From Comamonadaceae bacterium (GTDB taxonomy: Bacteria > Pseudomonadota > Gammaproteobacteria > Burkholderiales > Burkholderiaceae_C): DNA of 60,317 nucleotides. The stretch spans positions 1 to 60,317 of the forward strand of contig JAJTGB010000003.1 in assembly GCA_021298995.1 (NCBI GenBank), given 5' to 3'. Shown in pieces: positions 1,039-46,478 of the stretch. Position 1 is the first letter of the stretch. Every line of letters starts with the position of its first letter. Both the position numbers and the translations under genes were made by a program. The notes beneath the pieces are model-generated. The model made no database searches and was not told where the DNA came from. It worked only from the letters and a program-made list of their open reading frames with translations.

Positions 1039-3120
1039 TCAAGCTTTCAAAAACTCTGATTTTCCACCCAACCAGCGAGCAATGTGTCGCTCGGCCATGT
1101 CGGGGTATTTTGCTAGCAGCAAGGGTGCTGTTTGCCTGGCCCAATCGAGCAAATGCTCGTCTGTGGCCAAATCGGCAAATCGCAACAGGGCGGCCCCCGA
1201 TTGTCGCGCACCCAGAAACTCGCCAGGGCCTCTGATTTCCAAATCGCGTCTGGCAATTTCAAAACCATCGTTGGTGTCCACCATGGCACGCAATCGCTCG
1301 CGTGCCGTTTCACTCAAGCGGCCACCGTCCGGGGTGCCGTAAAGCAAAACACAGGCCGATGCAGCGGCGCCGCGCCCCACGCGCCCACGCAACTGGTGCA
1401 ACTGACTCAGGCCAAAGCGCTCGGCGTGTTCGATCACCATCAAGGAGGCATTGGGCACATCAACGCCCACTTCAATCACGGTGGTGCTGACCAACACGCC
1501 CATGCTGCCTTGTGTGAACTGGGCCATGACCTCGCGTTTTTCAGTCACCGACATGCGGGAATGCAACAAGCCCACCGTCACGCCTGGCAACACGGCAGAC
1601 AACTCTTCGTGGGTGGCCGTGGCATTGGTTAAATCTAAGGCTTCACTTTCTTCAATCAGAGGACACACCCAATAAACCTGTCGCCCCTCGGCCAATTGGG
1701 CGCCAATGCGCCCGATGACTTGATCGCGCCGGCTGTCTGAAATCACTTTGGTCACCACAGGGGTGCGGCCGGGTGGCAGTTCGTCAATGACCGAGACATC
1801 CAAGTCGGCGTAGTAGCTCATGGCCAAGGTGCGCGGAATGGGCGTGGCCGTCATCATGAGCAAGTGCGGCTCCATGCCCGCATCTTGCATCTTGTCTCTG
1901 AGCGCCAAGCGCTGTGCCACGCCAAAGCGATGTTGCTCGTCAATGATGGCGAGCGCCAGATTTTTAAACTTCACCTGCTCTTGAATCACAGCATGCGTGC
2001 CCACCACCAAAGCGGCTTCGCCCGATTCAATCAAGGCCAGCATTTCAGTGCGTTCTTTTTTCTTCTGACTGCCAGTGAGCCAGGCCACGCGCACACCCAA
2101 AGGCGCCAGCCAACCCACCAACTTGGCAAAATGTTGTTGAGCCAAAATTTCGGTGGGCGCCATCAGGGCACACTGCCAGCCGCCATCAATGGCCAACATG
2201 GCCGCAAAAGCGGCCACCACGGTTTTGCCAGCGCCCACATCGCCTTGAAGCAGCCGGTGCATGGGCACAGGTCGTGCCAAATCTTGCGCAATTTCTTGGC
2301 CCACTCTGTGTTGTGCCGCTGTTAACTCAAAGGGCAAAACCTTTTTCAATTTGTCGTGCCATCCATCCGCTTTCAAATGAAGGGCGGGGGCTCGCAAGGT
2401 GTCGCGCTCTTGTTTGGCCATGCGCTGTGAAAGTTGCTGCGCCAGCAGTTCTTCGGCTTTCAGCCTTTGCCAAACAGGATGCGAGCGGTCTTCAAGGGCT
2501 GCAATAGAAACCTCTGGCGTGGGATGGTGCAAGTAGGTCAGGGCTTGGCGCAAACTGGGGGCCAATTTGCCGTTGGGCGTAGAAGGCCAGCTGATGGCTG
2601 CAGGCAATGACTCGCCCAAATCGGCGCGCGACAAGGCGCTGGCTATGGCGCGGCGCAAATAGGTTTGCGGCAAGCCCGCAGAGACCGGGTAAACCGGCGT
2701 GAGTACCGATGGCAATTCACCCGATGCGGCCTTGAACGAAGGGTGCATCATGGTGAAACCCATCATCCCGCCCTTGACTTCACCTCTGGCCCTGATCACC
2801 TGGCCAACCGCCATGGCCTTTTGCTGGGCCGGATAGAAGCTGAAGAAACGCAACACACAAGTGTCGGTGCCATCATCCACCCTGACCAAGAGCTGGCGAC
2901 GCGGGCGCAACTGCACCTCGGATGAAACCACGGTGGCTTCTATTTGAACGGTATCACCCTCTCTGGCATCGCGCAATTTGACGATGCGCGTTTCGTCCTC
3001 GTAACGCAAAGGGATGTGCAGCGCCAGATCGATGTCGCGCACCAAGCCCATCTTGCGCATGGCTTTTTGCGGCGCTGACAAGGGCTTTACAGAGGAATTT
3101 GAGGATGCGTTGGCTGGCAT
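1039..3120 (-). CDS. recG: ATP-dependent DNA helicase RecG
   Basis: RecG remodels stalled replication forks and Holliday junctions by branch migration. The 693-residue protein matches family length. An N-terminal wedge/OB domain (about residues 45-200) precedes two helicase domains. Walker A is GDVGAGKT at residues 293-300, the DEQH box is at 394-397, followed by the MMTATPIPRTLAM segment. Domain 2 carries STTVIEVGVDVPNA and the QLRGRVGRG motif. The ATG start follows a 43-base gap from the upstream HTH gene. It heads a probable two-gene unit with oxyR. Confidence 0.96.
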   Translation of the reverse strand: MPANASSNSSVKPLSAPQKAMRKMGLVRDIDLALHIPLRYEDETRIVKLRDAREGDTVQIEATVVSSEVQLRPRRQLLVRVDDGTDTCVLRFFSFYPAQQKAMAVGQVIRARGEVKGGMMGFTMMHPSFKAASGELPSVLTPVYPVSAGLPQTYLRRAIASALSRADLGESLPAAISWPSTPNGKLAPSLRQALTYLHHPTPEVSIAALEDRSHPVWQRLKAEELLAQQLSQRMAKQERDTLRAPALHLKADGWHDKLKKVLPFELTAAQHRVGQEIAQDLARPVPMHRLLQGDVGAGKTVVAAFAAMLAIDGGWQCALMAPTEILAQQHFAKLVGWLAPLGVRVAWLTGSQKKKERTEMLALIESGEAALVVGTHAVIQEQVKFKNLALAIIDEQHRFGVAQRLALRDKMQDAGMEPHLLMMTATPIPRTLAMSYYADLDVSVIDELPPGRTPVVTKVISDSRRDQVIGRIGAQLAEGRQVYWVCPLIEESEALDLTNATATHEELSAVLPGVTVGLLHSRMSVTEKREVMAQFTQGSMGVLVSTTVIEVGVDVPNASLMVIEHAERFGLSQLHQLRGRVGRGAAASACVLLYGTPDGGRLSETARERLRAMVDTNDGFEIARRDLEIRGPGEFLGARQSGAALLRFADLATDEHLLDWARQTAPLLLAKYPDMAERHIARWLGGKSEFLKA

Positions 3121-3163
3121 CCTGACATTGTGCCGTGGATGCAGGCCTTAGTTGGCCCAAGGC

Positions 3164-3580
3164 TTAGGACGCTTTTTCAACCACCTTGGCCAACACAAAT
3201 GCAGTCACCACATCTCGAATGGTCTTGCGCTCTGTCTGTGGGAGCGACAAGTAACGGTCGATCATTTCGCGATCGGCCAGTGCCATTTCAATGGGGCCTG
3301 CATTCATTTCATAAACATAAGTTTTGCCAGGTGCGCGACCAAAGCGAAGTTCGTCAGGGCTTACTTGCAACCACTCAGCCAATACACGCAATTTGTCTTG
3401 CGTGGGCATGACTTTGCCCAAAAGCCAGTTGCGGGCCGTGTGCGGGGTAATGCTGCGTCCGTGGTAGCGAAGGTTGAAGGCGTTGGCCACCAAGGTCGGT
3501 GAAGCACGCACGCCAGCACTTTCCAACGCGCTGCGCAACCGATCAGCGAATTGTTGGGATTCGGATACTACTTTTGGCAT
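3164..3580 (-). CDS. Small helix-turn-helix transcriptional regulator
   Basis: A 138-residue protein with an XRE-like DNA-binding region at about residues 10-75. The ITPHTARNWLLGKVMPTQDKL segment reads as the recognition helix region, followed by a LAEWLQVSPDELRFG stretch typical of lambda-repressor-like domains. The C-terminal 60 residues are helical and may dimerise. No cofactor domain is visible. It is transcribed away from queA, and a 10-bp perfect palindrome lies just upstream of its ATG, which suggests autoregulation. Related proteins occur in Comamonadaceae genomes and on prophages, but nothing else phage-like is nearby. The regulon is unknown. Confidence 0.8.
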   Translation of the reverse strand: MPKVVSESQQFADRLRSALESAGVRASPTLVANAFNLRYHGRSITPHTARNWLLGKVMPTQDKLRVLAEWLQVSPDELRFGRAPGKTYVYEMNAGPIEMALADREMIDRYLSLPQTERKTIRDVVTAFVLAKVVEKAS

Positions 3581-3586
3581 GAACGT

Positions 3587-3596
3587 ACAGTACTGT
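3587..3596. promoter_or_regulatory. Candidate operator palindrome upstream of the HTH regulator
   Basis: The perfect 10-bp palindrome ACAGTACTGT ends 6 bases before the start codon of the minus-strand HTH gene. Its position would block transcription or initiation, as expected for an autorepressor site. Function is inferred. Confidence 0.45.
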
Positions 3597-3638
3597 CTTG
3601 GGTTTGCGTGATGTTGAATAAAGATAGATAGTTTCTTA

Positions 3639-3662
3639 AATGCGCTTTACATAATGCGCTTT
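3639..3662. repeat. Pair of AATGCGCTTT direct repeats in the HTH/queA intergenic region
   Basis: Two identical 10-mers start at 3639 and 3653, 14 bases apart, in the AT-rich 180-bp region between the divergent HTH gene and queA. They could be a tandem regulator site or leftover duplication. Nothing else is evident in this gap. Confidence 0.5.
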
Positions 3663-3763
3663 GTTACAAAATTTAGAAACATTTATTTGGCAAAGCTTTG
3701 CGCTATGTCATGGGACAATCAGTTTCTTTCACTTGGAACGGGTCTGGTTCGGCCCTCAAGACC

Positions 3764-6104
<2,341 letters not shown>

Positions 6105-6125
6105 GCAGGGCCTGAGGCCGCATAC

Positions 6126-7376
6126 TCAAGCCACATCTTCGGGCGTGGTGAAGACCGTCAACACACCGGTGTAGCCATACAAGTGGTGATGGGCAATTTC
6201 GCCGCTGGCAAAAAAGCCCACCAAAGGCACATCGCCCAGGGCATGGCGTATCCACTGCAGCTCAGCACTGGGGCCACCAAAGTGCGGGCCACCTCGCCCA
6301 GAGCAACTGACGTACACAGCACCTGCAATGCGCCGCGCAAGGTGCGGCGCAGCTTCTGCTTCACTGGCGGCCAAGGCATTGGCTATTTCTAGGCTCAAAG
6401 TTTCGGGCTCTAGCTCTTCTCGAATCTCTGAACAAATGCGCCGAAGATCAGACTTGGCGGCTTGCAAACTCATCTGACAAAAAGCCAATTTTTGTCCCAC
6501 CGCCAAATGGTCGGCAATGGCCACACCTTTTCGCGCAGGGTCTAGGCCGATGATGTGCCGCACGCGCACATCGGCACCCAAGCTGCCCGTTCGGCCAACC
6601 CCTTGCTGACCTTCCGACGTGATGCCAACCAAGGTTGACCTGACCGCTTTGAGTGCCGTTTGGGGTTCTGAGAGTGACACTTTCAAATCGGCCATGAGCA
6701 CGTCCAGTGCGGGCAAACCATCGAGTTGGTAAACCACATGGCCTTCCGCTTCTGTGATCTGGCGCTCTTTGCCAATGGGTGCACAACCTTGCGTCACGCG
6801 CGACAAAATTTGAACCTCTGGCGCCCACGCGACGCCGCTTAAGCCACCCGAGAAAACGCCTTTCTGAGCAGGCTCTGAGTCGTGCCATGCAAACTGCACA
6901 GCCTGCTTGCGGCTGGCAGTGAGGCCGCCAAACAAATACCCCTTATGTGTTCGGCTTGCCATTTCTGCAATGAGTTCTGCCAGATCGGGGGTTTGTGGAT
7001 CGGCATGCACAAGCGCGCTGGCCGCTTGAAAGCTGGGTGGCAAGGGCTGTGCGCCCGAAAAAACACGGTACTGATTGGCAGGCAAATCACACAACATCAG
7101 GGCCATGCCCGGTTCGTCAAAATACTCTGCGTTGTTGGCGGCCACCCCCACACCCACTGTGCCGGCCCAATCTTTCACCATGGGCAATTCTTGCTGGAGG
7201 TGCGCCAGAATAGCTTCGGCGTCATTGGCGTAGAAGTCGGTGATGTACAGCAGACCTAAACGCGGGCTGGTCGCATGGCCGGGCAAGGTCATTTGGGCAC
7301 GCAACTGGGCAATCACCAAGCCTGCTGCCATGGGCCACTGCGGGTGCGTGGCATGTCCGAAGGGAAACAAATTCAT
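6126..7376 (-). CDS. FIST domain sensory protein
   Basis: A 416-residue soluble protein with the FIST_N and FIST_C arrangement. FIST domains are thought to bind small ligands, perhaps amino acids, in signalling proteins. The central HKGYLFGGLTASR and the C-terminal GGPHFGGPSAELQWIRHAL, VPLVGFFASGEIAHH and LYGYTGVLTVFT segments are the family's conserved blocks. There is no transmembrane segment or output domain, so it would act alone or with partners. Its ATG overlaps the phaM stop as ATGA at 7376-7373, which implies translational coupling to phaM. Function is known only at domain level. Confidence 0.85.
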   Translation of the reverse strand: MNLFPFGHATHPQWPMAAGLVIAQLRAQMTLPGHATSPRLGLLYITDFYANDAEAILAHLQQELPMVKDWAGTVGVGVAANNAEYFDEPGMALMLCDLPANQYRVFSGAQPLPPSFQAASALVHADPQTPDLAELIAEMASRTHKGYLFGGLTASRKQAVQFAWHDSEPAQKGVFSGGLSGVAWAPEVQILSRVTQGCAPIGKERQITEAEGHVVYQLDGLPALDVLMADLKVSLSEPQTALKAVRSTLVGITSEGQQGVGRTGSLGADVRVRHIIGLDPARKGVAIADHLAVGQKLAFCQMSLQAAKSDLRRICSEIREELEPETLSLEIANALAASEAEAAPHLARRIAGAVYVSCSGRGGPHFGGPSAELQWIRHALGDVPLVGFFASGEIAHHHLYGYTGVLTVFTTPEDVA

Positions 7377-7995
7377 GGAGCTGGTTTTTTGGCGCGCGGT
7401 GCACGCGGCTTGCTGACTTTGCCAGACGTCGTTGTTTTCTTTGCGCTTGTTTTTGTTGTTGTCTTAGCCGTTTTTTGGCCAGGCTGAGCGCCCTCTTTCA
7501 TGGCCTTGGCAGCCACATCTTTCACAGCCGCCGCCGCAATGTTTTGAAACTGTTGGGTGAGCGATCCCCACCACTGCATGGGGTCAACGGCAGGGCCTTT
7601 TGCGGCATCTTGTTGGGGCTCGGCTGCCTTGGCCTCTGGCTGAAGGTCTGGCTGGGGGTCTGGCTGGAAGTCTGGCATTTTGGCGGTGAAGGCTTTGGAG
7701 CCATGTTGACATTCATGCCTTGCAAGGTCGACAAGGTCATTTTTTGCACTTCCAAAGCCTGAATGGTGGCCTTGAGCGCATTGGTGTTTTGCTCCAGCCA
7801 AAACTGAACCGTTTTGAGTTCTTGAATGCGCTTGTCGAGTTCTTCAATGTTCAAGGTGGGCGCCACCCAACTGGCCATGTTGGGCATGCCCTGTGGCGAG
7901 CCTTTGGCGCCGGGGTTGGCGGCTTGTCCCAAGTTTTGCAAGAAGTCAAAACCAGGCACAAATTTTCCAAATCCGAAAGCTGAGGTGTCGCTCAT
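7373..7995 (-). pseudogene. phaM: phaM, polyhydroxyalkanoate granule-associated regulator, frameshifted
   Basis: PhaM links PHB granules to the nucleoid and activates PHB synthase. The N-terminal half starts at the ATG at 7995, behind an AGGAG site, and includes the conserved LNIEELDKRIQELKTVQFWLEQN helix. The rest continues in another frame: a Gln/Pro repeat, DPMQWWGSLTQQFQNIA, then a Lys/Ala/Thr-rich histone-like tail ending at 7373. The frames fit if one base is missing near 7695-7704, just before a slippage-prone run of 12-bp repeats (about 7643-7679). Unrepaired, the first frame would run out of frame to 7522 and lose the basic tail. The ATGA overlap with the FIST gene supports 7373 as the original stop. 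It could be a real mutation or a sequencing error. Confidence 0.8.
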
Positions 7996-8148
7996 GGGGG
8001 CTCCTAGGGGTGTGTGAGGCTCAAGCTTAACGCATACCGTGAACAAAGCCACCGCAAACACAGCGTGGCGTCAACTGCGCGACCCACCAAGACACGATCA
8101 AAAGTTAAGCTCTGGCTTTATCTCAATACCTCTACAGGAAGACCCAAC

Positions 8149-8799
8149 ATGCTCACACTCTGCGGCTTTGGTGCCAGCAACTATCACAACAAAGTCAAAT
8201 TGGTGCTGCTGGAAAAGGGCCTTGCCTTTGAAGAAGAATTGGTCTGGGTGGGGCAGACCGATCCAGACGCTAGCCCCTTGGGCAAAGTGCCCTATTTGAA
8301 AACTGCACAAGGCTTCCTGTGCGAGTCAGCGGTCATGGTGGAATACATTGAGCAGCAATACCCTGAGCATCCCCTGTTACCCAAGGACGCCTTCCAAGCT
8401 GCCAAGGTGCGTGAACTCGTCGTTTTTTTAGATTTGCACTTGGAGTTGGTGGCACGAAACCTCTACCCCGAGGCCTTCTTTGGCGGCAAGGTGAGTGATG
8501 CAGTCAAGGAAAAGGTGGGCGCTCAACTTGAGAAGAATGTGGCAGCATTTGCCAAGCTTGCGCAATTCAAACCCTTCATTGCAGGCACTGAAATGAGCAT
8601 CGCCGACTGCACCGCAGCCGTTCATTTGCCATTGATCACGGCTGTCAGTAAAACCATGTACGGCCGAGATTTTCTGGCCGACTTGCCCGTCAAGGACTAC
8701 ATGAAAATGTGGTCGGAGCGACCCAGCATGCAAAAAGTGCAAGCGGATCGCAGAGCCAACAATGAGCTCTTCTTGGCACGCATGAAAAGCAAGGCTTAA
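8149..8799 (+). CDS. Glutathione S-transferase
   Basis: A cytosolic GST of 216 residues. The N-terminal thioredoxin-like domain has the S-N-Y-H active-site region near residue 10, the cis-proline motif LGKVPYLKT, and the glutathione-binding [11 protein letters not shown] segment. The helical C-terminal domain has the [12 protein letters not shown] motif, where the buried aspartate caps a helix. The start at 8149 follows an AGGAAG site; the frame is open further upstream but without homology. It converges with and overlaps the enoyl-CoA hydratase by four bases. Beside the hydratase and the FAH-family hydrolase it may help in aromatic or thioester catabolism, but that is only context. Confidence 0.9.
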
Positions 8800-9614
8800 A
8801 AGTGGGGTGGGCGGCGCTCTCGGAGGCTGGCCAAACCCTCTTGCACATCAGGCCCTGAAAAGCCCATGAACTCCAGCGCCAAAGAAGCATCAAAGCTGGG
8901 GCCGGCTTGGCGCAGCCAATTGTTCAGCGCATACTTGGTCCAGCGAATGGCAGTTTGGCTGCCATTGGCCAAGCGATCGGCCACCTCATAGGCCTTAGGC
9001 AATAGCTGGTCTTCTTCAACCGCCAATGACACCAAGCCAATTCGCTCGGCTTCTTCGCCACTTACAGGCTCACACAACAACAAGTAGTACTTGGCTTTGG
9101 CCATGCCACAAAGCAGTGGCCAAATGATGGCCGCATGGTCGCCCGCTGCAACCCCCAAACGGGTGTGGCCATCCACAATTTTGGCGGTCTTGCTGGCAAT
9201 GGAAATGTCTGCCAACAATCCCGCCACCAACCCAGCGCCTACTGCCGGTCCGTGTATGGCACTCACGATGGGCTTGTCGCAGTTGATCACGTTGTAGACC
9301 AGGTCGCGGGCTTCTTTCCAGACCCTGCTGCGAATCTCAAAATCGCGCGCCATGTCTTCCACCAACGCCAAGTCGCCACCGCCCGAAAAGCCCAAGCCTT
9401 CACCCCGCAGCACCGCAGCGCGCACGCTGTCATCGCGCGACACATCGCGCCAAATTTCGGCCAACTCCCAATGACCTTCGTGACCCGCTGTGGGCAACTT
9501 GCCATTGCCACCAGGGCCGCCGGCTTTCATCTGAATGTCGAGCACCGTTTGATTGGCACCCCGACGCGTGATTTGCAGTGTTTGGTAGCGACTGTAGTCA
9601 ATGACTTGGCTCAT
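8796..9614 (-). CDS. Enoyl-CoA hydratase/isomerase family protein
   Basis: Crotonase-fold enzyme of 272 residues. The oxyanion-hole segments are visible: [12 protein letters not shown] and the [21 protein letters not shown] block. A glutamate at the usual first acid position is not obvious in the [10 protein letters not shown] segment, so the reaction may not be simple hydration. It is 21 bases downstream of an FAH-family gene on the same strand, so the two are probably cotranscribed in a small catabolic unit. The substrate is not evident from sequence. Confidence 0.85.
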
Positions 9615-9635
9615 GAAGGTCTCCAGAAAAAGGAA

Positions 9636-10649
9636 TCACGCTTTGTCGAAAGGCGCAATTTTCTGGTCAATGGCGCCAAACACACTTTGCCCATCTTTGC
9701 CCTTCATTTCAATGCGAATGCTGTCGCCGAATTTCATGAACTCGGTGCTGGGTTTGCCATCCAAAATGGTTTCAATAGCCCGCTTTTCCGCAATGCAGCT
9801 ATAACCTTTGGGCCACTCAGGCTTGCCATTGACGTCGACGCTTTTGTTGCTGACCGTGCCACTGCCCACAATGGAGCCCGCGCGCACGTTGCGCGTTTTG
9901 CCCATGTGCGCAATGAGTTGTCCGAAGTGGAAGGTCATTTCAGGACCCGCCTCACACATGCCCACCTTGCGGCCGTTCCAAGTTGACTGCATGGTCAGGT
10001 GCACACGGCCGTGATCCCAGGCATCGCCCAGTTCATCCACGGTGACCGCTACAGGGCTGAAAGCAGTTGCAGGTTTGCTTTGGAAAAAGCCAAAACCTTT
10101 GCCCAGTTCGTTGGCAATCAAGTTTCGCAAACTCACGTCGTTGGCAAGCATCACCAAACGGATACCGTCCAAGGCATTTTCGGGGGAGACCCCCATGGGC
10201 ACATCGCCAGTGATGACGGCAATTTCGGCCTCAAAGTCAATGCCAAAGGCTTCGTCGCGGCAAAGCACAGGGTCGCAAGGCCCCATGAAATCATCACTGC
10301 CGCCCTGGTACATGAGTGGGTCGGTGTAAAAACTGTGCGGCACTTCAGAGCTGCGCGCTGCGCGCACCAACTCCACATGGTTCAAATAGGCTGAGCCGTC
10401 TGCCCACTGGTAGGCTCTGGGCAAAGGGGCCATGCATTGTTGGGGATCGAAGGGAAAGGCATGACGGGCTTTGACACTGTTCAGTGTTTGGTAAAGGTCT
10501 TCGAGTTGGGGCGACAAAAAGTTCCAGTCGTCTAGCACCTGCTGCATGCGCAAGGCGATGCCAGTCGCATAATGTGCTGTGCTCAAGTCACGCGAGACCA
10601 CAATCAATTGACCGTCACGTGATCCGTCTTTGTAAGTCGCTAATTTCAT
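9636..10649 (-). CDS. Fumarylacetoacetate hydrolase family protein
   Basis: A 337-residue FAH-fold protein with an N-terminal extension and a catalytic domain from about residue 125. Metal-binding acidic residues lie in the FGIDFEAEIAVITGDVPMG segment, followed by DVSLRN, and then RAGSIVGSGTVSN, typical of FAH enzymes. The family includes fumarylacetoacetase, hydratases and oxaloacetate decarboxylases, so the reaction is open. It heads a two-gene unit with the crotonase. A 160-base spacer separates it from the divergent DUF3108 gene; I see no clear promoter or other feature there. Confidence 0.88.
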   Translation of the reverse strand: MKLATYKDGSRDGQLIVVSRDLSTAHYATGIALRMQQVLDDWNFLSPQLEDLYQTLNSVKARHAFPFDPQQCMAPLPRAYQWADGSAYLNHVELVRAARSSEVPHSFYTDPLMYQGGSDDFMGPCDPVLCRDEAFGIDFEAEIAVITGDVPMGVSPENALDGIRLVMLANDVSLRNLIANELGKGFGFFQSKPATAFSPVAVTVDELGDAWDHGRVHLTMQSTWNGRKVGMCEAGPEMTFHFGQLIAHMGKTRNVRAGSIVGSGTVSNKSVDVNGKPEWPKGYSCIAEKRAIETILDGKPSTEFMKFGDSIRIEMKGKDGQSVFGAIDQKIAPFDKA

Positions 10650-40712: not shown

Positions 40713-41351
40713 TTAGGTCCCACCCACATAAGGGTTGCTGCGACGTTCACGACCAAACGTGCTTTCAGGGCCATGGCCTGGAATGAACACTGTGTCATCG
40801 CCCATGGGCCACAAGCGCTGCGTGATGCTGGCAATCAAGGTGTCGTGGTCGCCTTGGGGGAAATCTGTGCGGCCAATGCTGCCGGCAAACAACACATCGC
40901 CAACAAACGCACGCCGGATCTCAGGTGAATGAAACACCACATGGCCGGGTGTGTGGCCAGGGCAGTGTCGAACGTTCAAAGTGTGCGAACCCAGGGTGAC
41001 GGTATCGCCATCGGCCAGCCACCGGGTGGGCGTGAAAATTTCTGCATCAGGAAACTGAAACATGCGACCTTGATCCGACAAACGATCAATCCAAAACTGG
41101 TCACCCGGGTGCGGCCCCACGATGGGCAAATTCAATTCACGCGCCAACACCGCTGTACCGCCTGCGTGATCAATGTGCGCGTGCGTGAGCCAAATTTGCT
41201 CCAGTTTCAAACCCCGCTTTTGCACCTCTGACAAGATCAAGTGCAGGTCACCGCCTGGATCGATCACGGCCGCTTGTTGGGTTTGGTCGTCCCAAATCAA
41301 AGAGCAGTTTTGTTGAAACGGCGTGACTGGAATGGTTTGGTACTGAAGCAT
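40713..41351 (-). CDS. MBL-fold metallohydrolase (glyoxalase II-like, YcbL group)
   Basis: A 212-residue hydrolase. The metal-binding motif is LTHAHIDHAGG, with further ligands in RHCPGHTPGHVVF and AFVGDVLFAGSIGRTDFPQGD, and the final histidine in FIPGHGPESTFG. It lacks the C-terminal domain of true glyoxalase II, as in YcbL-type enzymes. It is transcribed away from the peptide-export cassette; the 91-base spacer between them holds no clear feature beyond AT-rich stretches. Confidence 0.9.
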   Translation of the reverse strand: MLQYQTIPVTPFQQNCSLIWDDQTQQAAVIDPGGDLHLILSEVQKRGLKLEQIWLTHAHIDHAGGTAVLARELNLPIVGPHPGDQFWIDRLSDQGRMFQFPDAEIFTPTRWLADGDTVTLGSHTLNVRHCPGHTPGHVVFHSPEIRRAFVGDVLFAGSIGRTDFPQGDHDTLIASITQRLWPMGDDTVFIPGHGPESTFGRERRSNPYVGGT

Positions 41352-41442
41352 GCTGGTATTTCAAAGGGTTTCGCTTGCAAGGCAATGTAACAAAGTTTGC
41401 CTGTGAAACTCGTATTGTGAGGTCTTGTTCACTGACTCACAC

Positions 41443-42777
41443 ATGACCACACCCCTTTTTCGCACGGAGGTCACCCAATCCAAGCAGGCCTCTTGGATGG
41501 GCCCCATTCACCTCGCACACCATCCGCGCTTCAGCGTTGTGGCTGGTATAGCCTTGCTGTTGGCAGGTGCCTTGCTGGCTTACGGCGCATGGGGGCAAGT
41601 AGCTCGCAAAGTTCGCATACCGGGTGTCCTCATGCCGCAATGGGGCACTGTAGAGTTGAGTTCCGCCGTTTCAGGTGTGCTGCTCGAACAGCGCGTGAAA
41701 GAAGGCGACTGGGTTGAACAAGGCCAAGTTTTGTTTGTGGTCAACACCGACAAAGTCTCGGCTGAAGGCAGCACAGCAAGCTTGCTGGCATCGCATTTGG
41801 CACAACGCCGAAGCACGCTGTTGGCTGAGCGCCAATCCCGCGTTGCACAAAACCGCCAACGCGAAGCCCATCTGTCAGACCGCATTCGTTCCTTGTCGCT
41901 TGAAACAGCCCAGGCAAGCCAAGAGCAAGTGTTGGCTAATCGCAGGGTTGAATTGGCACAAAAAACATGGCAACGCTTTGAGCAAATGGCAGCCCAAGGC
42001 TTTGTCTCTGACATTCAAGCGCAAGGCAAGCAAGAAGAACTCATTGACCTCCAATCGCGCTTGGAAAATACACTGCGCAATGGCGTTGCTCTTACACGCG
42101 AACACCATTTAGCCCAAGCCGACTTGCGCCATCTTCAACAACAACTGGCCATCGACCTCCTCCAAATTGACCGCAGCCTGGCCAGCCTCGATCAAGAAAA
42201 AGCCGAAATTCAATCGCGCAAAACCAGCAGTGTGCTGGCGCCGCAGGCAGGCCAAGTTAGCACCATTCACTTAAGCCTAGGGGCTATGGCGCAGGCAGGT
42301 CAAACCATTGCCAGCTTGGTGCCGCAGGCCAGCACCATGGCATCCGATCCCTTGTCAGCCGACCCTCCGTCACCCAGCCCATCGGCACACACCTTGGTTG
42401 CCGCTCTGTTTGCGCCCACTCGCACCGCCGGCTTCATTCAACCCGGACAAGAGGTGTGGCTTCGCTTGGCCGCCTACCCGTATCAAAAGTTTGGACTGGC
42501 CAGAGGCCGCGTTTTGAAGGTGAGCGGCACACCCATTGCGCCACAAGATTTGCCGCATGGTCAGGGTACAGCCCTGATGGCTTCCACGCAAAGCAACGAG
42601 CCGCTCTACAGAATTCACGTCGAATTGGCATCCCAACATGTCATGGCTTTTGGCGAGGCACGTCCCTTGCGCCCTGGCATGACCCTCGAAGCCGACGTCA
42701 TCCACGATCTGCGCGGCATTTGGGAATGGGTCTTTGAGCCACTCTTGGCCATTCATGCACGTCAAAAAATATCATGA
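41443..42777 (+). CDS. HlyD/CvaA-type membrane fusion protein of the peptide export cassette
   Basis: Periplasmic adaptor of 444 residues for type I secretion. One transmembrane helix lies at about residues 33-52, after a short cytoplasmic N-terminus. A biotinyl-lipoyl half-motif follows (VELSSAVSGVLLEQRVKEGDWVEQGQ in parts), then a long coiled-coil hairpin (about 105-260), and the second lipoyl half SSVLAPQAGQVSTIHLSLGAMAQAGQ in parts. The C-terminus has LRPGMTLEADVIHDLRGIWEWV, typical of the CvaA/HlyD group. It opens the cassette and overlaps the next gene by ATGA. No TolC-like outer-membrane gene is present, so a chromosomal TolC elsewhere would be needed. Confidence 0.9.
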   Translation: MTTPLFRTEVTQSKQASWMGPIHLAHHPRFSVVAGIALLLAGALLAYGAWGQVARKVRIPGVLMPQWGTVELSSAVSGVLLEQRVKEGDWVEQGQVLFVVNTDKVSAEGSTASLLASHLAQRRSTLLAERQSRVAQNRQREAHLSDRIRSLSLETAQASQEQVLANRRVELAQKTWQRFEQMAAQGFVSDIQAQGKQEELIDLQSRLENTLRNGVALTREHHLAQADLRHLQQQLAIDLLQIDRSLASLDQEKAEIQSRKTSSVLAPQAGQVSTIHLSLGAMAQAGQTIASLVPQASTMASDPLSADPPSPSPSAHTLVAALFAPTRTAGFIQPGQEVWLRLAAYPYQKFGLARGRVLKVSGTPIAPQDLPHGQGTALMASTQSNEPLYRIHVELASQHVMAFGEARPLRPGMTLEADVIHDLRGIWEWVFEPLLAIHARQKIS

Positions 42778-43313
42778 ACTTCATCCAAAGCATCAGGGCC
42801 TCACCGCTCAATCGGCATGGCTTCATTGACGTGTTGGTTGGCATCAATCTGATCCAAGCCATCCATATCACTTTGATTGCCTTGCTTTTCAATTTAGATG
42901 CTGGCCCTGACAACGAAGAAACCATGCCGCTGATGGCCATCGCCATTTCAATGTTGTTGGCAGCGCCGCTTTTCGAAAATTTCTTGTTGGTGGTGCTGGC
43001 AGCCATTCACGAGAAACTGTTTAACAGGCGCTTGCTGTTTGTAGTAGCGCCTTTCATCATGGTGTTGCTTCACTTCACAACGCCACAAAACCTGCCATTT
43101 CCCATTGTGATCCGAGTCATTGCACTGTTTTTCTTCTTCTACTTTTTTTTAAAACAGTACGACTTGCACAAGTTGGAAATGGGCAAGGGCAAGGCGTATC
43201 TGTTGAGCTGCATTCTTCACTTTTCAGTGAATGCCACCGTGATTTTGGTCTTGTCTTTATTTGATTTTTATATCGCCGCTGAAACGATTTTTTCAGCACA
43301 ACCAGGAGAATGA
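42774..43313 (+). CDS. CPBP-like membrane protein, candidate immunity or accessory factor
   Basis: A 179-residue membrane protein with about five hydrophobic helices. It shows the three-part pattern of CPBP/Abi proteins in degraded form: APLFENFLL at about 64-72, where the canonical motif has two glutamates; FIMVLLH at 94-100; and HFSVN at 149-153, matching H-x3-N. The second glutamate of motif 1 is asparagine here, so protease activity is doubtful. CPBP-type proteins act as immunity or processing factors in some class II bacteriocin clusters. Its place between adaptor and peptide genes, with a four-base overlap upstream and one base downstream, suggests such a role. Family assignment is tentative. 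Confidence 0.6.
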   Translation: MNFIQSIRASPLNRHGFIDVLVGINLIQAIHITLIALLFNLDAGPDNEETMPLMAIAISMLLAAPLFENFLLVVLAAIHEKLFNRRLLFVVAPFIMVLLHFTTPQNLPFPIVIRVIALFFFFYFFLKQYDLHKLEMGKGKAYLLSCILHFSVNATVILVLSLFDFYIAAETIFSAQPGE

Positions 43314-43314
43314 A

Positions 43315-43527
43315 ATGAGAAATTTAAACATCGAAGAATTGAACCAAGTCGAGGGGGGCGGTATTGTGGCCCGATGGGCGTTCAAGATGGGCGAGGCCAT
43401 TGCCAACATGTATGCCGTGTATGAAGCGGCTGGATTATTTGATATTGACACCTCATCGCGTGAAACGCCAGATCCAATTGGCTACAACCCCATGGGCGAC
43501 TTCTCCAGCAACATGTGCGCCCGCTAA
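43315..43527 (+). CDS. Double-glycine leader peptide, candidate microcin or signal peptide precursor
   Basis: A 70-residue precursor with an AGGAG ribosome site 8 bases before its ATG. Residues 1-15 form a classic GG leader: Leu at -12, Glu at -8, Leu at -7, Val at -4, and Gly-Gly at -2/-1, with a third glycine at residue 16. The predicted core is 55 residues, starting GIVARWAFKMG. It contains an amphipathic helix (about 18-41), then an Asp/Pro/Gly-rich tail with one cysteine at residue 68. By count the core has about seven acidic and four basic residues, so it is net acidic, unlike most pore-forming bacteriocins. I recognise no homologue. It sits between the adaptor/CPBP genes and the C39 exporter that would cleave and export it. 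Confidence 0.8.
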   Translation: MRNLNIEELNQVEGGGIVARWAFKMGEAIANMYAVYEAAGLFDIDTSSRETPDPIGYNPMGDFSSNMCAR

Positions 43528-43542
43528 ATCTGGCCTGCAATA

Positions 43543-43567
43543 GCCTGCGCACCGGCGGTGCGCAGGC
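43543..43567 (+). terminator. Strong intercistronic hairpin between the peptide and exporter genes
   Basis: GCCTGCGCACC, a GGC loop and GGTGCGCAGGC form a perfect 11-bp GC-rich stem. No T-run follows, so it is more likely an attenuator, partial terminator or mRNA 3' stabiliser for the peptide message than a full Rho-independent terminator. This would give more peptide than exporter. Confidence 0.7.
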
Positions 43568-43599
43568 CTCTACATACATGCATTAGAAATGAGTTTCCC

Positions 43600-45690
43600 T
43601 TGAACCCTGTGTTGCAATTGCAAGCGTCTGAATGCGGCTTGGCTTGTTTGTGCATGATTGCCAACGCACATGGTCAACATTGGCAGCTCATGGATTTGCG
43701 GCACAAGTTTCCACAGTCACTCAAGGGGGCCAACCTCAAGCAACTCATCGATCACAGTCTAGTCTTGGGATTCAATGCCCGCCCCGTTCGCTTGGAGTTG
43801 GAAGAGCTGAGCCAACTGCGCTTGCCATGCATCTTGCATTGGGACTTGAATCACTTTGTGGTTATGCAAAAAATCAGGGGCAACAAAATCACTTTGCTCG
43901 ATCCCGCATTGGGTGTAAGGCTGGTTTCACGCTCTGAAATTTCGCAGCATTTCACGGGCATCGCTTTGGAGCTCACTCCCCAGCCCGACTTCAAAACCAT
44001 TCCAGCCCCCAAGGCTTTTCCGCTTTCCATGCTCACCGGCAAGCTTCAAGGCTTTGGCAAATCAGCACTCCAAATATTGGCGCTGGCGTTGGTCCTCGAG
44101 CTGTTTGCCATCCTCATGCCCATGTTCAACCAAGTCGTGGTAGACGATGTTTTAAGCTCGGGTGACCACGAATTGCTTTCTGTATTGGCCATCGGCTTTG
44201 CCATCATTCTCCTCATTCAATCGGCCCTGTCCTACGCGCGCAGTTGGTGGGTCATGGTGCTCAGTCAAAGTGTTTCTGTTCAATGGCTTGGCAATGTGTT
44301 TGCGCACTTGGTCAAGCTGCCAGCCGATTGGTTTGCCAAGCGCCACCTGGGCGACATCTCATCGCGCTTCAACGCTGTTCACGACATTCAAAAAACCCTC
44401 ACTCAAACCGCCATCGAATCACTTCTCGATGGCTTGATGGCCGTTGCAGCTCTGGTCATGATGTTCATTTACTCACCCACTCTCACTTGGGTGGTTGTGA
44501 GCGCTTGCGCCTTGTATGCTTTGGTGCGCTGGGTCAGTTATTCGCCGTTCAGGCATGCCGCCTCAGAACGATTGGTCTTGTCGGGTCAGGAGCAAAGTCA
44601 CTTCATTGAAACGCTTCGAGCCATGACACCACTCAAATTATTTTCCAGAGAAAATGAGCGGCGGGCGCGATGGCAAAGTCTCATGGTGGAAGTCATGAAC
44701 CGTGATTTTCAAACCGCCAAATTGAACATGGGTTTCAATGTTGCACGCACACTTATTTTTGGCCTCGAAAATTTATGCGTCTTCTGGTTAGGCGCCAAAA
44801 TCATTTTGCCATCGCAAGCGCACAACCAAAGTGCAAGCGTTTTCACGGTGGGCATGCTGCTGGCTTTCATCAGCTACAAAATTCAATTCACAGGTCGCGT
44901 CAGTGCGCTCATTAACCAAGGCATTGAACTCAAAATGCTCAATTTGCATCGCGACAGGTTGGCCGATATTGTGCTCACACCGCCTGAGCAAGATACACCG
45001 CAAGGAAACTTGCCTTTTCACGACTTGACCCACTTGCCCGCCAGTCTTGAACTTCGCAAGGTTTCATTTCGGTACAGCGAGGGCGAGCCTTGGCTGCTTT
45101 ACAACATGGACCTTTGCATTCAAGCGGGCGAACATGTCGCCATTTCGGGCGCCAGCGGTTGTGGCAAAACCACCCTGCTTAAAATTTTGTTGGGTCTGCT
45201 CACGCCAACCCACGGCATGGTCTTGTATGGGGGCGTGCCCATCAGCCAATTGGGCATGTCCAATGTTCGCCGCAAAATTGGGGTTGTCATGCAAGAAGAT
45301 GCGTTGCTCACCGGGAGCATTGCCGACAACATCGCCTTCTTTGATCTGTCGCCTCAGCTTTCCAGAATTGAAGCCTGCGCCCAATTGGCAGAAATTCACA
45401 AAGAAATTACACGCATGCCCATGGGCTATCAAACGCTCATTGGCGAGTTGGGCACGGGCCTCAGCGGCGGTCAAAAGCAGCGTCTTTTGTTGGCACGCGC
45501 GCTCTATGCTCAGCCTAGCGTTTTGGCCTTAGACGAAGCCACCAGCCATTTGGACATGCACAATGAAAGTGCCGTTTCCAGCACGCTGTCACAGCTCAAA
45601 CTCACGCGCATTGTGATTGCCCATCGTCCCGAAACCATTGCCAGGGCAGACAGGCATGTTCACTTTAGTTTGCCCGTGATTCCAGCTTGA
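43600..45690 (+). CDS. C39-peptidase ABC exporter (CvaB/PCAT type)
   Basis: Bifunctional transporter of 696 residues, close to the length of CvaB. The N-terminal C39 peptidase has Q6 and catalytic C12 in QASECGLAC, H85 in WDLNHFVV, and D101 followed by proline; these are the expected Cys-His-Asp set. A six-helix membrane domain spans about 145-440. The ABC domain has Walker A GASGCGKTTLL, signature LSGGQKQRLLLARAL, Walker B VLALDEATSHLD and the H-loop in VIAHRPE. The start is probably TTG at 43600, overlapping the stop of a 4-codon ORF; a GTG at 43558 lies inside the hairpin. It would cut the GG leader and export the core. Confidence 0.92.
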   Translation: MNPVLQLQASECGLACLCMIANAHGQHWQLMDLRHKFPQSLKGANLKQLIDHSLVLGFNARPVRLELEELSQLRLPCILHWDLNHFVVMQKIRGNKITLLDPALGVRLVSRSEISQHFTGIALELTPQPDFKTIPAPKAFPLSMLTGKLQGFGKSALQILALALVLELFAILMPMFNQVVVDDVLSSGDHELLSVLAIGFAIILLIQSALSYARSWWVMVLSQSVSVQWLGNVFAHLVKLPADWFAKRHLGDISSRFNAVHDIQKTLTQTAIESLLDGLMAVAALVMMFIYSPTLTWVVVSACALYALVRWVSYSPFRHAASERLVLSGQEQSHFIETLRAMTPLKLFSRENERRARWQSLMVEVMNRDFQTAKLNMGFNVARTLIFGLENLCVFWLGAKIILPSQAHNQSASVFTVGMLLAFISYKIQFTGRVSALINQGIELKMLNLHRDRLADIVLTPPEQDTPQGNLPFHDLTHLPASLELRKVSFRYSEGEPWLLYNMDLCIQAGEHVAISGASGCGKTTLLKILLGLLTPTHGMVLYGGVPISQLGMSNVRRKIGVVMQEDALLTGSIADNIAFFDLSPQLSRIEACAQLAEIHKEITRMPMGYQTLIGELGTGLSGGQKQRLLLARALYAQPSVLALDEATSHLDMHNESAVSSTLSQLKLTRIVIAHRPETIARADRHVHFSLPVIPA

Positions 45691-46478
45691 GCGTAAGATG
45701 GGTTGCATCAGACACAACCCGTGCCTGCCCGATTGTCTATCTGCCACATCACGCTTCAACACCCACACTGGGCCAGAACCTCCCACTGACACACGTCGAT
45801 GACGGCTATCAAACCAAGCACGAGTCCATCGCTGTTCAAGGCGTTCCCAATTTGCTCATTCGCTCTTTGCTCGACAAGCAACAGTTTTTTGACCCTGAGG
45901 GTGCTGCGCTTGCCCTTGGCATTTCTTCCGCTTTTTGGTCGCTGTTTGGTTTACTCTGGCCCTCAGGCTCAAAGTTGGCGGAGCGCTTAGCCATCCGGCC
46001 TGTCAGTGCACAAGAGCGCATCCTTGAACTGGGCTGTGGCTTGGCGCTGGCAAGCTTGGTTGGGCATCGCCGCGGTGCCAACATCACGGCATCTGACTGT
46101 CACCCACTGGCTGGTGAGTTTTTAAAAGAGAATTTGCGCCTCAACAACTTGGCCCCCATGAGTTACCAGCATGGTCAATGGGGCGAACACGCAACACAAC
46201 AACAAGACCCTGTTGTGAGCACCAAGTTCGACTTGATCATTGGCAGCGACATTCTTTATGAGCGCGATGAACGTGGCGACCTGGCGCACTACATCAACGC
46301 GCACATTGAAGACCATGCGGAGGTTTGGGTGGTTGATCCCAATCGGGGCAATCGCTCTCACTTTCATCGCAACATGGCCGCGCAAGGTTTTGCGCTCAAT
46401 GAAGAAACACTGATTGTTTCAGCCACGGAAAATAAAGCGGCCTACAAAGGCCGAATGCTCACCTATTTGCGCGATTAA
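45687..46478 (+). CDS. Class I SAM-dependent methyltransferase (METTL/NNMT-like)
   Basis: A Rossmann-fold methyltransferase with SAM motif I ILELGCGLALASLVGHRRGA, motif II ASDCHPLAGEFLKENLRLN, motif IV FDLIIGSDILYERD and DPNRGNRSHFHRNMAAQG. It resembles lysine methyltransferase-like proteins common in Comamonadaceae. The start is unclear: the frame opens at a TTG at 45687 that overlaps the exporter stop, and about 40 residues before the conserved part look unconserved. No in-frame ATG is nearby. It may simply read through from the cassette. Confidence 0.8.
   Translation: MSVRWVASDTTRACPIVYLPHHASTPTLGQNLPLTHVDDGYQTKHESIAVQGVPNLLIRSLLDKQQFFDPEGAALALGISSAFWSLFGLLWPSGSKLAERLAIRPVSAQERILELGCGLALASLVGHRRGANITASDCHPLAGEFLKENLRLNNLAPMSYQHGQWGEHATQQQDPVVSTKFDLIIGSDILYERDERGDLAHYINAHIEDHAEVWVVDPNRGNRSHFHRNMAAQGFALNEETLIVSATENKAAYKGRMLTYLRD

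What the first reader, a model, noticed from the sequence alone, without database searches (positions are those of the whole stretch)
41443..45690. Compact double-glycine peptide export cassette: candidate undescribed microcin or peptide-signal system
Seen: four tightly packed genes in the order HlyD/CvaA adaptor, CPBP-like membrane protein, a 70-residue GG-leader peptide, and a C39-peptidase ABC exporter of CvaB size with Cys12/His85/Asp101. Overlaps or gaps between the first three are -4 and +1 base. Known: this gene set secretes class II microcins such as MccV, with leader cleavage by the C39 domain. Inferred: the peptide is the cargo and the CPBP-like protein is immunity or accessory. No family name comes to mind for the core, and I am not aware of a described microcin in this lineage.
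Basis: partly seen in the sequence, partly recalled or inferred. Interest (0 to 1): 0.88.

Follow-up and report, generated by a model that had tools for sequence, protein, structure and literature searches.

The report
Limnohabitans microcin-like toxin–immunity cassette
A freshwater bacterium carries a compact set of four genes that looks built to make, release and protect itself from a small peptide weapon; relatives carry the same export machinery with exchanged versions of the peptide and its presumed protector, which is what one expects of a bacteriocin.

Summary
Window 41443-45690 encodes an HlyD adaptor, a CPBP-like membrane protein, a 70-aa GG-leader peptide and a C39-peptidase ABC exporter. 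Peptide and membrane protein occur side by side in the same 19 of 90 genus genomes. Best explanation: a class II microcin-like bacteriocin, secreted and matured by adaptor and exporter, with the CPBP-like protein as immunity.

Evidence beyond gene order: (1) peptide and membrane protein evolve faster than adaptor and exporter. (2) In 15 loci the N-terminal half of the mature peptide co-diverges with the membrane protein after controlling for adaptor and exporter (partial r 0.57, p 0.0005); leader and C-terminal half do not clearly. (3) In two closely related operon pairs the tract 'membrane protein + peptide N-half' is replaced while adaptor and exporter stay similar. (4) Two cis elements: a compensated hairpin after the peptide, and 12 codons before the peptide ribosome site with 0 of 1,374 synonymous differences.

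Activity, target and secretion are untested. Closest known in logic: microcin S, whose immunity protein is also assigned to the CAAX family. A new family of a known kind, in a genus for which my paper searches found no described microcin.

The parts
41443..42777 (+). HlyD/CvaA-type periplasmic adaptor, 444 aa
   Evidence: Pfam HlyD_3 43.4 bits, Biotin_lipoyl; TIGR01843 100.4 bits, below its cut-off 208.65; 75-93% identical in the 16 other loci where it is complete or nearly so
42774..43313 (+). CPBP-like membrane protein, 179 aa; inferred immunity protein; E68, N69, H100, H149, N153 invariant in 18
43272..43308 (+). Frozen nucleotide block at the 3' end of the membrane-protein gene (hairpin arms 43278-43284/43291-43297), running into the peptide ribosome-binding site
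   Evidence: 0 of 1,374 same-residue codon pairs differ over alignment columns 172-183 (window residues 167-178), against 44% in the rest of the gene (17 loci); alignment of 19 loci; arms; bases kept in L026 and L036, where the ORF is broken or shortened
43315..43527 (+). Precursor peptide, 70 aa: 15-aa leader ending EGG, predicted 55-aa mature peptide (6.0 kDa, pI 4.4)
   Evidence: profile matches in 19 of 90 genus genomes
43360..43449 (+). Core-N: variable N-terminal half of the mature peptide (residues 16-45); inferred specificity segment
   Evidence: mean aa distance 0.63 over 15 loci; covaries with the membrane protein, partial r 0.57; helix 15-41 in a low-confidence model
43450..43524 (+). 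Core-C: more conserved C-terminal part with invariant N58, M60, G61, D62 (N-x-M-G-D)
   Evidence: motif also in both peptides of the divergent locus L101
43543..43567 (+). Hairpin between peptide and exporter; inferred partial terminator or mRNA 3' stabiliser
   Evidence: a hairpin is predicted at this place in each of 18 loci; 7 of 11 pairs with compensatory changes, 93.9% of cells paired; fold_alignment
43600..45690 (+). C39-peptidase ABC exporter (PCAT), 696 aa, TTG start; Cys12, His85, Asp101; Walker A 517, LSGGQ 621, Walker B 641
   Evidence: 81-97% identical in the 17 other aligned loci (partial in L038), 73% in G408

Best explanation
The cassette makes a class II microcin-like bacteriocin. 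The 70-aa precursor is docked by its 15-aa leader on the C39 domain, cut after GG, and the ~55-aa, 6-kDa acidic peptide is exported in one step through the HlyD adaptor and a TolC encoded elsewhere. It acts on close relatives; its N-terminal half (variable, helix-prone) carries the part that the immunity protein recognises and probably the part that meets the inner-membrane target, while the more conserved C-terminal part with NxMGD does a job common to all versions (perhaps uptake). The 179-aa CPBP-like protein sits in the inner membrane and protects the producer. Immunity is translated just before the toxin (4-base and 1-base junctions), and a frozen element just upstream of the toxin ribosome site, plus a hairpin after the toxin gene, set toxin dose above exporter dose. 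Shown: gene content, conserved catalytic triad, GG leader, co-occurrence, co-divergence, tract replacement, base-pair covariation in the downstream hairpin. Inferred: secretion, killing, immunity, target, and the roles of the two elements.
For: C39 triad and Q6 invariant in 18 loci. Peptide and membrane protein in exactly the same 19 of 90 genus genomes, adjacent in each. Mean aa distance over 15 loci: exporter 0.137, HlyD 0.192, membrane protein 0.393, peptide 0.492; pN/pS 0.15, 0.22, 0.42, 0.48. Core-N covaries with the membrane protein given HlyD and exporter, r 0.569 p 0.0005 (0.564, p 0.0002 with leader and core-C also controlled); leader 0.196 p 0.12, core-C 0.067 p 0.33, HlyD C-end and exporter N-end none. 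L032 vs L056: HlyD 97% and exporter 98% aa, membrane protein 61%, core-N 53%, core-C 92%, with sharp nucleotide boundaries; L028 vs L029 similar on the upstream side. CPBP-like fold. TolC-family protein present, 309 bits over cut-off 225. Presence/absence: hydrolase and methyltransferase adjacent in non-carriers and one loss scar (L102). Exporter relatives in the genus and order often sit beside other GG peptides.
Confidence: 0.8

Rival explanations
1. Peptide signal (pheromone) exported by a ComA-like C39 exporter, with the CPBP-like protein as receptor or processing protease.
For: Same export machinery; CAAX-type proteases also occur beside quorum-sensing loci (SilX paper, listing and start of abstract only). 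The conserved NxMGD end could be a receptor-binding part.
Against: Seven flanking genes (window 38.3-49.2 kb) are an MFS protein, M48 peptidase, MBL hydrolase, methyltransferase, Exo_endo_phos, phosphoribosyltransferase and a Fic protein with a regulator-like C-terminal match; no histidine kinase or response regulator. The mature peptide is long (50-56 aa). The variable half, not the conserved part, covaries with the membrane protein, and the pair is present in 19 of 90 genomes only.
Confidence: 0.09
2. The CPBP-like protein is a maturation or accessory protease for the peptide and immunity lies elsewhere or is not needed.
For: E68, H100, H149 and N153 are invariant in 18 and fall in the stretch aligned with the Rce1-like set; they resemble the catalytic residues of type II CAAX proteases (recalled). 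Co-divergence with the peptide also fits an enzyme and its substrate.
Against: The second Glu and the Arg of EExxxR are absent (motif recalled and seen in A4). Covariation is with core-N rather than with the leader as a whole. I saw no other small membrane protein in the cassette. Microcin S has a CAAX-family immunity protein shown by test (PMC3316575, passages).
Confidence: 0.1
3. Self-lysis peptide, as with the Neisseria gonorrhoeae Nap peptides, which look like bacteriocins but drive autolysis.
For: A precedent with GG peptides and a C39 peptidase (PMC11798529, passages); Neisseria is also betaproteobacterial (recalled).
Against: Naps are cationic; these mature peptides are acidic (pI 4.2-4.9). 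Tract-swapped peptide-immunity versions fit competition between strains better than self-lysis.
Confidence: 0.03
4. The small ORF is a chance reading frame beside an exporter with another cargo.
For: Single-sequence leader scores are below cut-off.
Against: Leader, GG/GS, NxMGD and ribosome site conserved in 18 loci; pN/pS 0.48; profile E-values to 2.9e-39 (members of the profile among them).
Confidence: 0.005

Closest known systems
Microcin S (mcsS-mcsI-mcsA-mcsB, E. coli G3/10; PMC3316575, passages read)
   Different: Gene order (here adaptor, membrane protein, peptide, exporter); precursor 70 aa vs 11.67 kDa; megaplasmid vs the window's contig; McsI is 216 aa and its authors predict no transmembrane helices, here 179 aa and helical membrane fold; sequence similarity to McsS or McsI not tested
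Microcin V / colicin V (CvaA, CvaB, CvaC, Cvi)
   Same: Export logic; C39 triad with identical spacing (CvaB Cys32/His105/Asp121 in PMC9746304 and PMC10233263, passages; here 12/85/101)
   Different: Immunity protein type, peptide sequence, no Cys pair (MccV disulfide recalled); not compared directly
Moraxella catarrhalis McbABCI (PMC2761928, passages read)
   Same: Four-gene adaptor, exporter, GG bacteriocin and immunity operon outside Enterobacteriaceae, killing of a strain that lacks the locus
   Different: Immunity factor is 74 aa with four predicted helices and no similarity to other proteins in that paper; gene order
SpdC (PDB 6u0o) and the CPBP/Abi superfamily
   Different: 15% identity; different role; SpdC's place in the Abi/CPBP family is recalled

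Membership tests
Class II microcin / GG bacteriocin | Precursor with N-terminal leader ending GG/GA/GS | tested here: met
   G14 invariant, GG in 16 and GS in 2 of 18
Class II microcin / GG bacteriocin | PCAT with Cys-His-Asp triad | tested here: met
   C12, H85, D101 in 18 of 18; PF03412 118.9 bits
Class II microcin / GG bacteriocin | Membrane fusion protein encoded alongside | tested here: met
   HlyD_3 43.4 bits
Class II microcin / GG bacteriocin | TolC in the genome | tested here: met
   TIGR01844 309 bits at G000:C26
Class II microcin / GG bacteriocin | Mature peptide about 5-10 kDa | tested here: met
   5.5-6.1 kDa predicted, 18 loci
Class II microcin / GG bacteriocin | Sequence similarity to a verified class II microcin family | tested here: inconclusive
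   No Pfam/NCBIfam family over cut-off for the window peptide; 7 of 18 members weakly Bacteriocin_IIc, best E 9e-4; verified microcins not compared directly
Class II microcin / GG bacteriocin | Adjacent immunity protein that protects | not testable with these tools
   Only co-occurrence, co-divergence and fold
Class II microcin / GG bacteriocin | Antibacterial activity | not testable with these tools
   none
Class IIb (siderophore) microcin | C-terminal Ser/Gly-rich siderophore site | tested here: not met
   C-termini end in NxMGD plus up to about 8 residues, not Ser/Gly-rich (by eye)
CPBP / type II CAAX protease superfamily (179-aa protein) | Fold | tested here: inconclusive
CPBP / type II CAAX protease superfamily (179-aa protein) | Profile similarity | tested here: inconclusive
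   hhalign E 3.6e-5 but probability 71%; 5 of 18 members weakly Rce1-like, best E 0.012
CPBP / type II CAAX protease superfamily (179-aa protein) | Full motifs EExxxR, FxxxH, HxxxN (recalled) | tested here: not met
   One Glu (E68) and no Arg in motif 1; H100 and H149xxxN153 kept, all invariant. So CPBP-like, not a canonical CAAX protease

The most novel reading that the evidence does not exclude
A polymorphic microcin: one fixed exporter and one nearly fixed peptide end serve an exchangeable specificity pair, made of the N-terminal half of the mature peptide plus a CPBP-like immunity protein that keeps protease-like residues and may cut or trap the incoming helix in the membrane. The pair is replaced as one ~0.6-0.7 kb tract by recombination in conserved flanks, and an element frozen at synonymous sites just ahead of the toxin ribosome site governs toxin synthesis, so each swap keeps its dosage control.
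Probability: 0.3. Interest if true: 0.75.

Novelty: new member of a known kind. Interest (0 to 1): 0.58.

Why it matters
[quoted passage not shown] The family gives a natural allelic series, two named strain genomes that carry it (MMS-10A-178, Rim11), natural non-carriers as possible targets, and a direct prediction of who immunises whom. It would also be a second Gram-negative case, after microcin S, of CAAX-like immunity, and offers a clean synonymous-site constraint that predicts an unknown control element.

Tried and rejected
Peptide versus plasmids, phages and viral contigs: no credible hit (one Bacteroides leader-only match, E 1; one E 0.8 match under an FtsK gene; 36 pattern matches, none confirmed). 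Membrane protein versus plasmids: none. PADLOC: none. Rfam on 41200-45800: none up to E 5. Sigma-70 and terminator scans gave fewer hits than shuffles, so no promoter is proposed. Foldseek against PDB gave nothing at E 0.001; Rce1 itself is not in the VIA list shown, which excludes nothing. PDB sequence search with both families: nothing credible. Peptide fold: too poor to search. The GG-pattern scan found no convincing GG peptide near the 46-47% and 36-37% exporters in L050, L051, L054 and L126, nor, by reading, in L098, where an ORF that I read as a transposase lies between adaptor and exporter. The idea that 3'-end conservation of the membrane-protein gene is protein constraint was rejected: L026 and L036 lose the frame or end early but keep the bases, and no synonymous change occurs there although pS in the rest of the gene reaches 0.63-0.70 between some loci.

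Rows dropped: the Mantel tests used 15 of 18 loci (without L026, broken membrane-protein ORF; L028, partial HlyD; L038, partial exporter); the synonymous test 17 of 18 (without L026). G408/L101 (divergent, two peptides) is in neither. The Rce1-like set A4 holds 9 of the 13 loci, those whose ORF matched my motif pattern.
Full report
What is there. The window lies in a 2.27-Mb, 79%-complete assembly (G000). The nearest named relative of the exporter is Limnohabitans sp. MMS-10A-178 (97%, L023), so I take the organism to be Limnohabitans (Burkholderiales). The four genes are confirmed at the stated coordinates. The exporter most likely starts at TTG 43600, which makes Cys12, His85 and Asp101 correct; Q6 and the triad are invariant in 18 loci. 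The spacing is the same as in CvaB (Cys32, His105, Asp121 in PMC9746304 and PMC10233263, passages). A TolC-family protein is encoded elsewhere in the assembly (309 bits, cut-off 225). Flanking genes are ordinary: MFS, M48 peptidase, MBL hydrolase on one side; methyltransferase, Exo_endo_phos, phosphoribosyltransferase and Fic on the other.

Family and distribution. I assembled 18 orthologous loci (window, L023-L036, L038, L039, L056). All 18 have adaptor, membrane protein, peptide and exporter in that order (adaptor partial in L028, exporter partial in L038, both at contig ends; exporter interrupted by a stop in L029). Profile searches of 90 genomes of the genus find the peptide in 19 and the membrane protein in the same 19, adjacent in each. 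In 299 genomes sampled from the family, 141 genera, only the window's own genome has the peptide. The exporter at E 1e-120 or better is in 30 of 90: the 19 carriers and 11 others. Of the 11, G005 and G394 have it at the same junction but cut by the contig end, and G022 has it within 16 bases of a contig end; G360, G398 and G017 have different GG peptides (61, 128 and 139 aa); G359 has an ORF that I read as a transposase in the interval and no GG peptide that I found; G011, G025, G389 and G034 show no convincing one by my pattern.

Insertion site. In carriers the cassette lies between an MBL-fold hydrolase and a methyltransferase gene. In non-carriers such as G034 and G363 these two are divergent neighbours 156 and 143 bases apart by match ends (L103, L104), and by my own count from the listings the same holds, within 300 bases, in 25 genomes. 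G020 keeps the first 28 codons of hlyD next to about 104 codons of the exporter's end (L102): a natural loss of the rest. The cassette is therefore accessory.

The peptide. The leader (M-R-x-L-N-I-x-E-L-N-x-V-x-G-G by majority) is fairly conserved (mean aa distance 0.29), the next ~30 residues vary strongly (0.63), and the end is intermediate (0.45) with invariant N, M, G and D. Predicted mature peptides are 50-56 aa, 5.5-6.1 kDa, pI 4.2-4.9, with no or one Cys. The divergent locus L101 (G408) has two peptides flanking the membrane protein, each with a GG leader and N-x-M-G-D near the end; the profile scores the second at only E 1e-7 and reports a stop within that match.

Why toxin and immunity. 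Over 15 complete loci mean aa distances are 0.137 exporter, 0.192 adaptor, 0.393 membrane protein, 0.492 peptide. With adaptor and exporter distances controlled, core-N covaries with the membrane protein (r 0.569, p 0.0005), the leader does not clearly (0.196, p 0.12; 0.31, p 0.02 with the protein's N-half alone), nor core-C (0.067, p 0.33), nor the neighbouring ends of adaptor and exporter. The leader lies between the membrane-protein gene and core-N, so simple closeness is a poor explanation, although the leader varies little. Against this, the membrane protein also covaries with the adaptor (0.37, p 0.002) and the peptide weakly with the exporter (0.27, p 0.058). Of 19 locus pairs with exporters at least 92.5% identical, six combine high adaptor identity (92-99%; only the last 135 residues where L028 is involved) with membrane proteins of only 59-61%: L032/L056 and five pairs with L028, that is, at least two events. 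In L032/L056, 100-base bins run at 93-100% to the start of the membrane-protein gene, fall to 52-68% through it and core-N (86% in the bin with the frozen block and leader), return to 99% in core-C and stay at 87-100% after it. L028/L029 shows 91-94% before the drop, 48-80% within it, and regains 82-96% only from the exporter start on. Replacement of one presumed specificity pair while the machinery stays is the pattern expected of bacteriocin-immunity modules.

Two cis elements. A hairpin at 43543-43567, between peptide and exporter, is predicted in each of 18 loci; 7 of 11 pairs show compensatory changes and 93.9% of cells pair; four of the five measures are reached by 0 of 500 shuffles, the fifth by 1, and slid controls pair at most 44%. 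A T-run does not follow in every locus, so partial terminator or mRNA stabiliser is an inference. Second, 12 codons near the end of the membrane-protein gene (window residues 167-178) that precede the peptide ribosome site show 0 synonymous differences in 1,374 same-residue codon pairs, against 44% in the rest of the gene. The bases persist in L026 and L036 where the ORF is broken or shortened, and nearly so in L101, whose membrane protein is 42% identical. They contain GCTGAAA-6-TTTCAGC (-6.6 kcal/mol for the 20-mer). The pattern with up to one mismatch occurs once in each of 17 of 90 genomes, all carriers and all at this place (the carriers G019 and G407 depart further); the reversed-pattern control rang once, in G368. 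Four of the 19 aligned loci differ in the stem (by eye): L027, L029 and L039 keep the pairs as G-U, L101 loses the loop-closing pair. No Rfam family matches. What it does is unknown; control of toxin translation or mRNA stability is my guess.

What is known. Microcin S is the closest in logic: its immunity protein McsI is assigned to the CAAX protease family and protects (PMC3316575, passages), although its authors predict no transmembrane helices for it. McbABCI of Moraxella is a tested four-gene GG bacteriocin operon outside Enterobacteriaceae (PMC2761928, passages). A 2022 review calls microcins outside Enterobacteriaceae unconfirmed as yet, and a 2026 paper tests candidates from Pantoea, Erwinia and Xanthomonas (PMC10233263, PMC13174018, passages). 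Searches for Limnohabitans with bacteriocin (17 papers, none about one by its title), Limnohabitans with microcin (1, unrelated title), 'class II microcin' with Betaproteobacteria (0) and related terms (listings only) showed no description of this family. Class II microcins are described as having an N-terminal uptake and a C-terminal antibacterial domain in one passage of PMC13174018, while another speaks of N-terminal antibacterial domains resembling MccH47; here the immunity-linked part is N-terminal, as in the latter.

Verdict. Real, well conserved, and best read as a bacteriocin-immunity cassette of a new peptide family; a new member of a known kind. The modular replacement and the frozen element are what a specialist would find of interest. 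Activity is untested.

Noticed in passing
L099 (G360:C42), 5709-8885, minus strand: Beside a 71%-identical exporter: 61-aa GG peptide with a Gly/Ser-rich end, 166-aa protein without a family match, HlyC-like acyltransferase (PF02794 28.8 bits, over cut-off) and a weakly SelO-like protein (below cut-off). Recalls (from memory) the HlyC-type enzymes of siderophore microcins E492/H47; possibly a modified microcin in the same genus..
   Followed up: partly
L101 (G408:C55), 3921-6247: Variant cassette with two different GG peptides on either side of the membrane protein, both ending in N-x-M-G-D; possibly a two-peptide system..
   Followed up: partly
L102 (G020:C30), 1463-1845: Deletion scar: hlyD codons 1-28 next to exporter codons from 589; peptide and membrane protein lost. 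A natural non-producer and predicted sensitive strain..
   Followed up: yes
window 43272-43308 and orthologues: Twelve codons with no synonymous variation in 17 loci, overlapping a small hairpin upstream of the peptide ribosome site; function unknown..
   Followed up: partly
L045 (G017:C8), 8495-9861, minus strand: A 60-61%-identical exporter of the genus sits with a 139-aa GG peptide and a TraB/PrgY/GumN-family protein (84.5 bits) in the interval where the window has the CPBP-like protein..
   Followed up: partly
L052 (G048), 2519-3959: Four GG- or GA-leader ORFs in a row upstream of the adaptor of a 45%-identical exporter, two with glycine-serine-rich, repeat-like cores..
   Followed up: no
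G000:C57:2400-4400: A second C39-domain ABC protein in the same genome (28% identity to the window's; C39 40.1 bits)..
   Followed up: no
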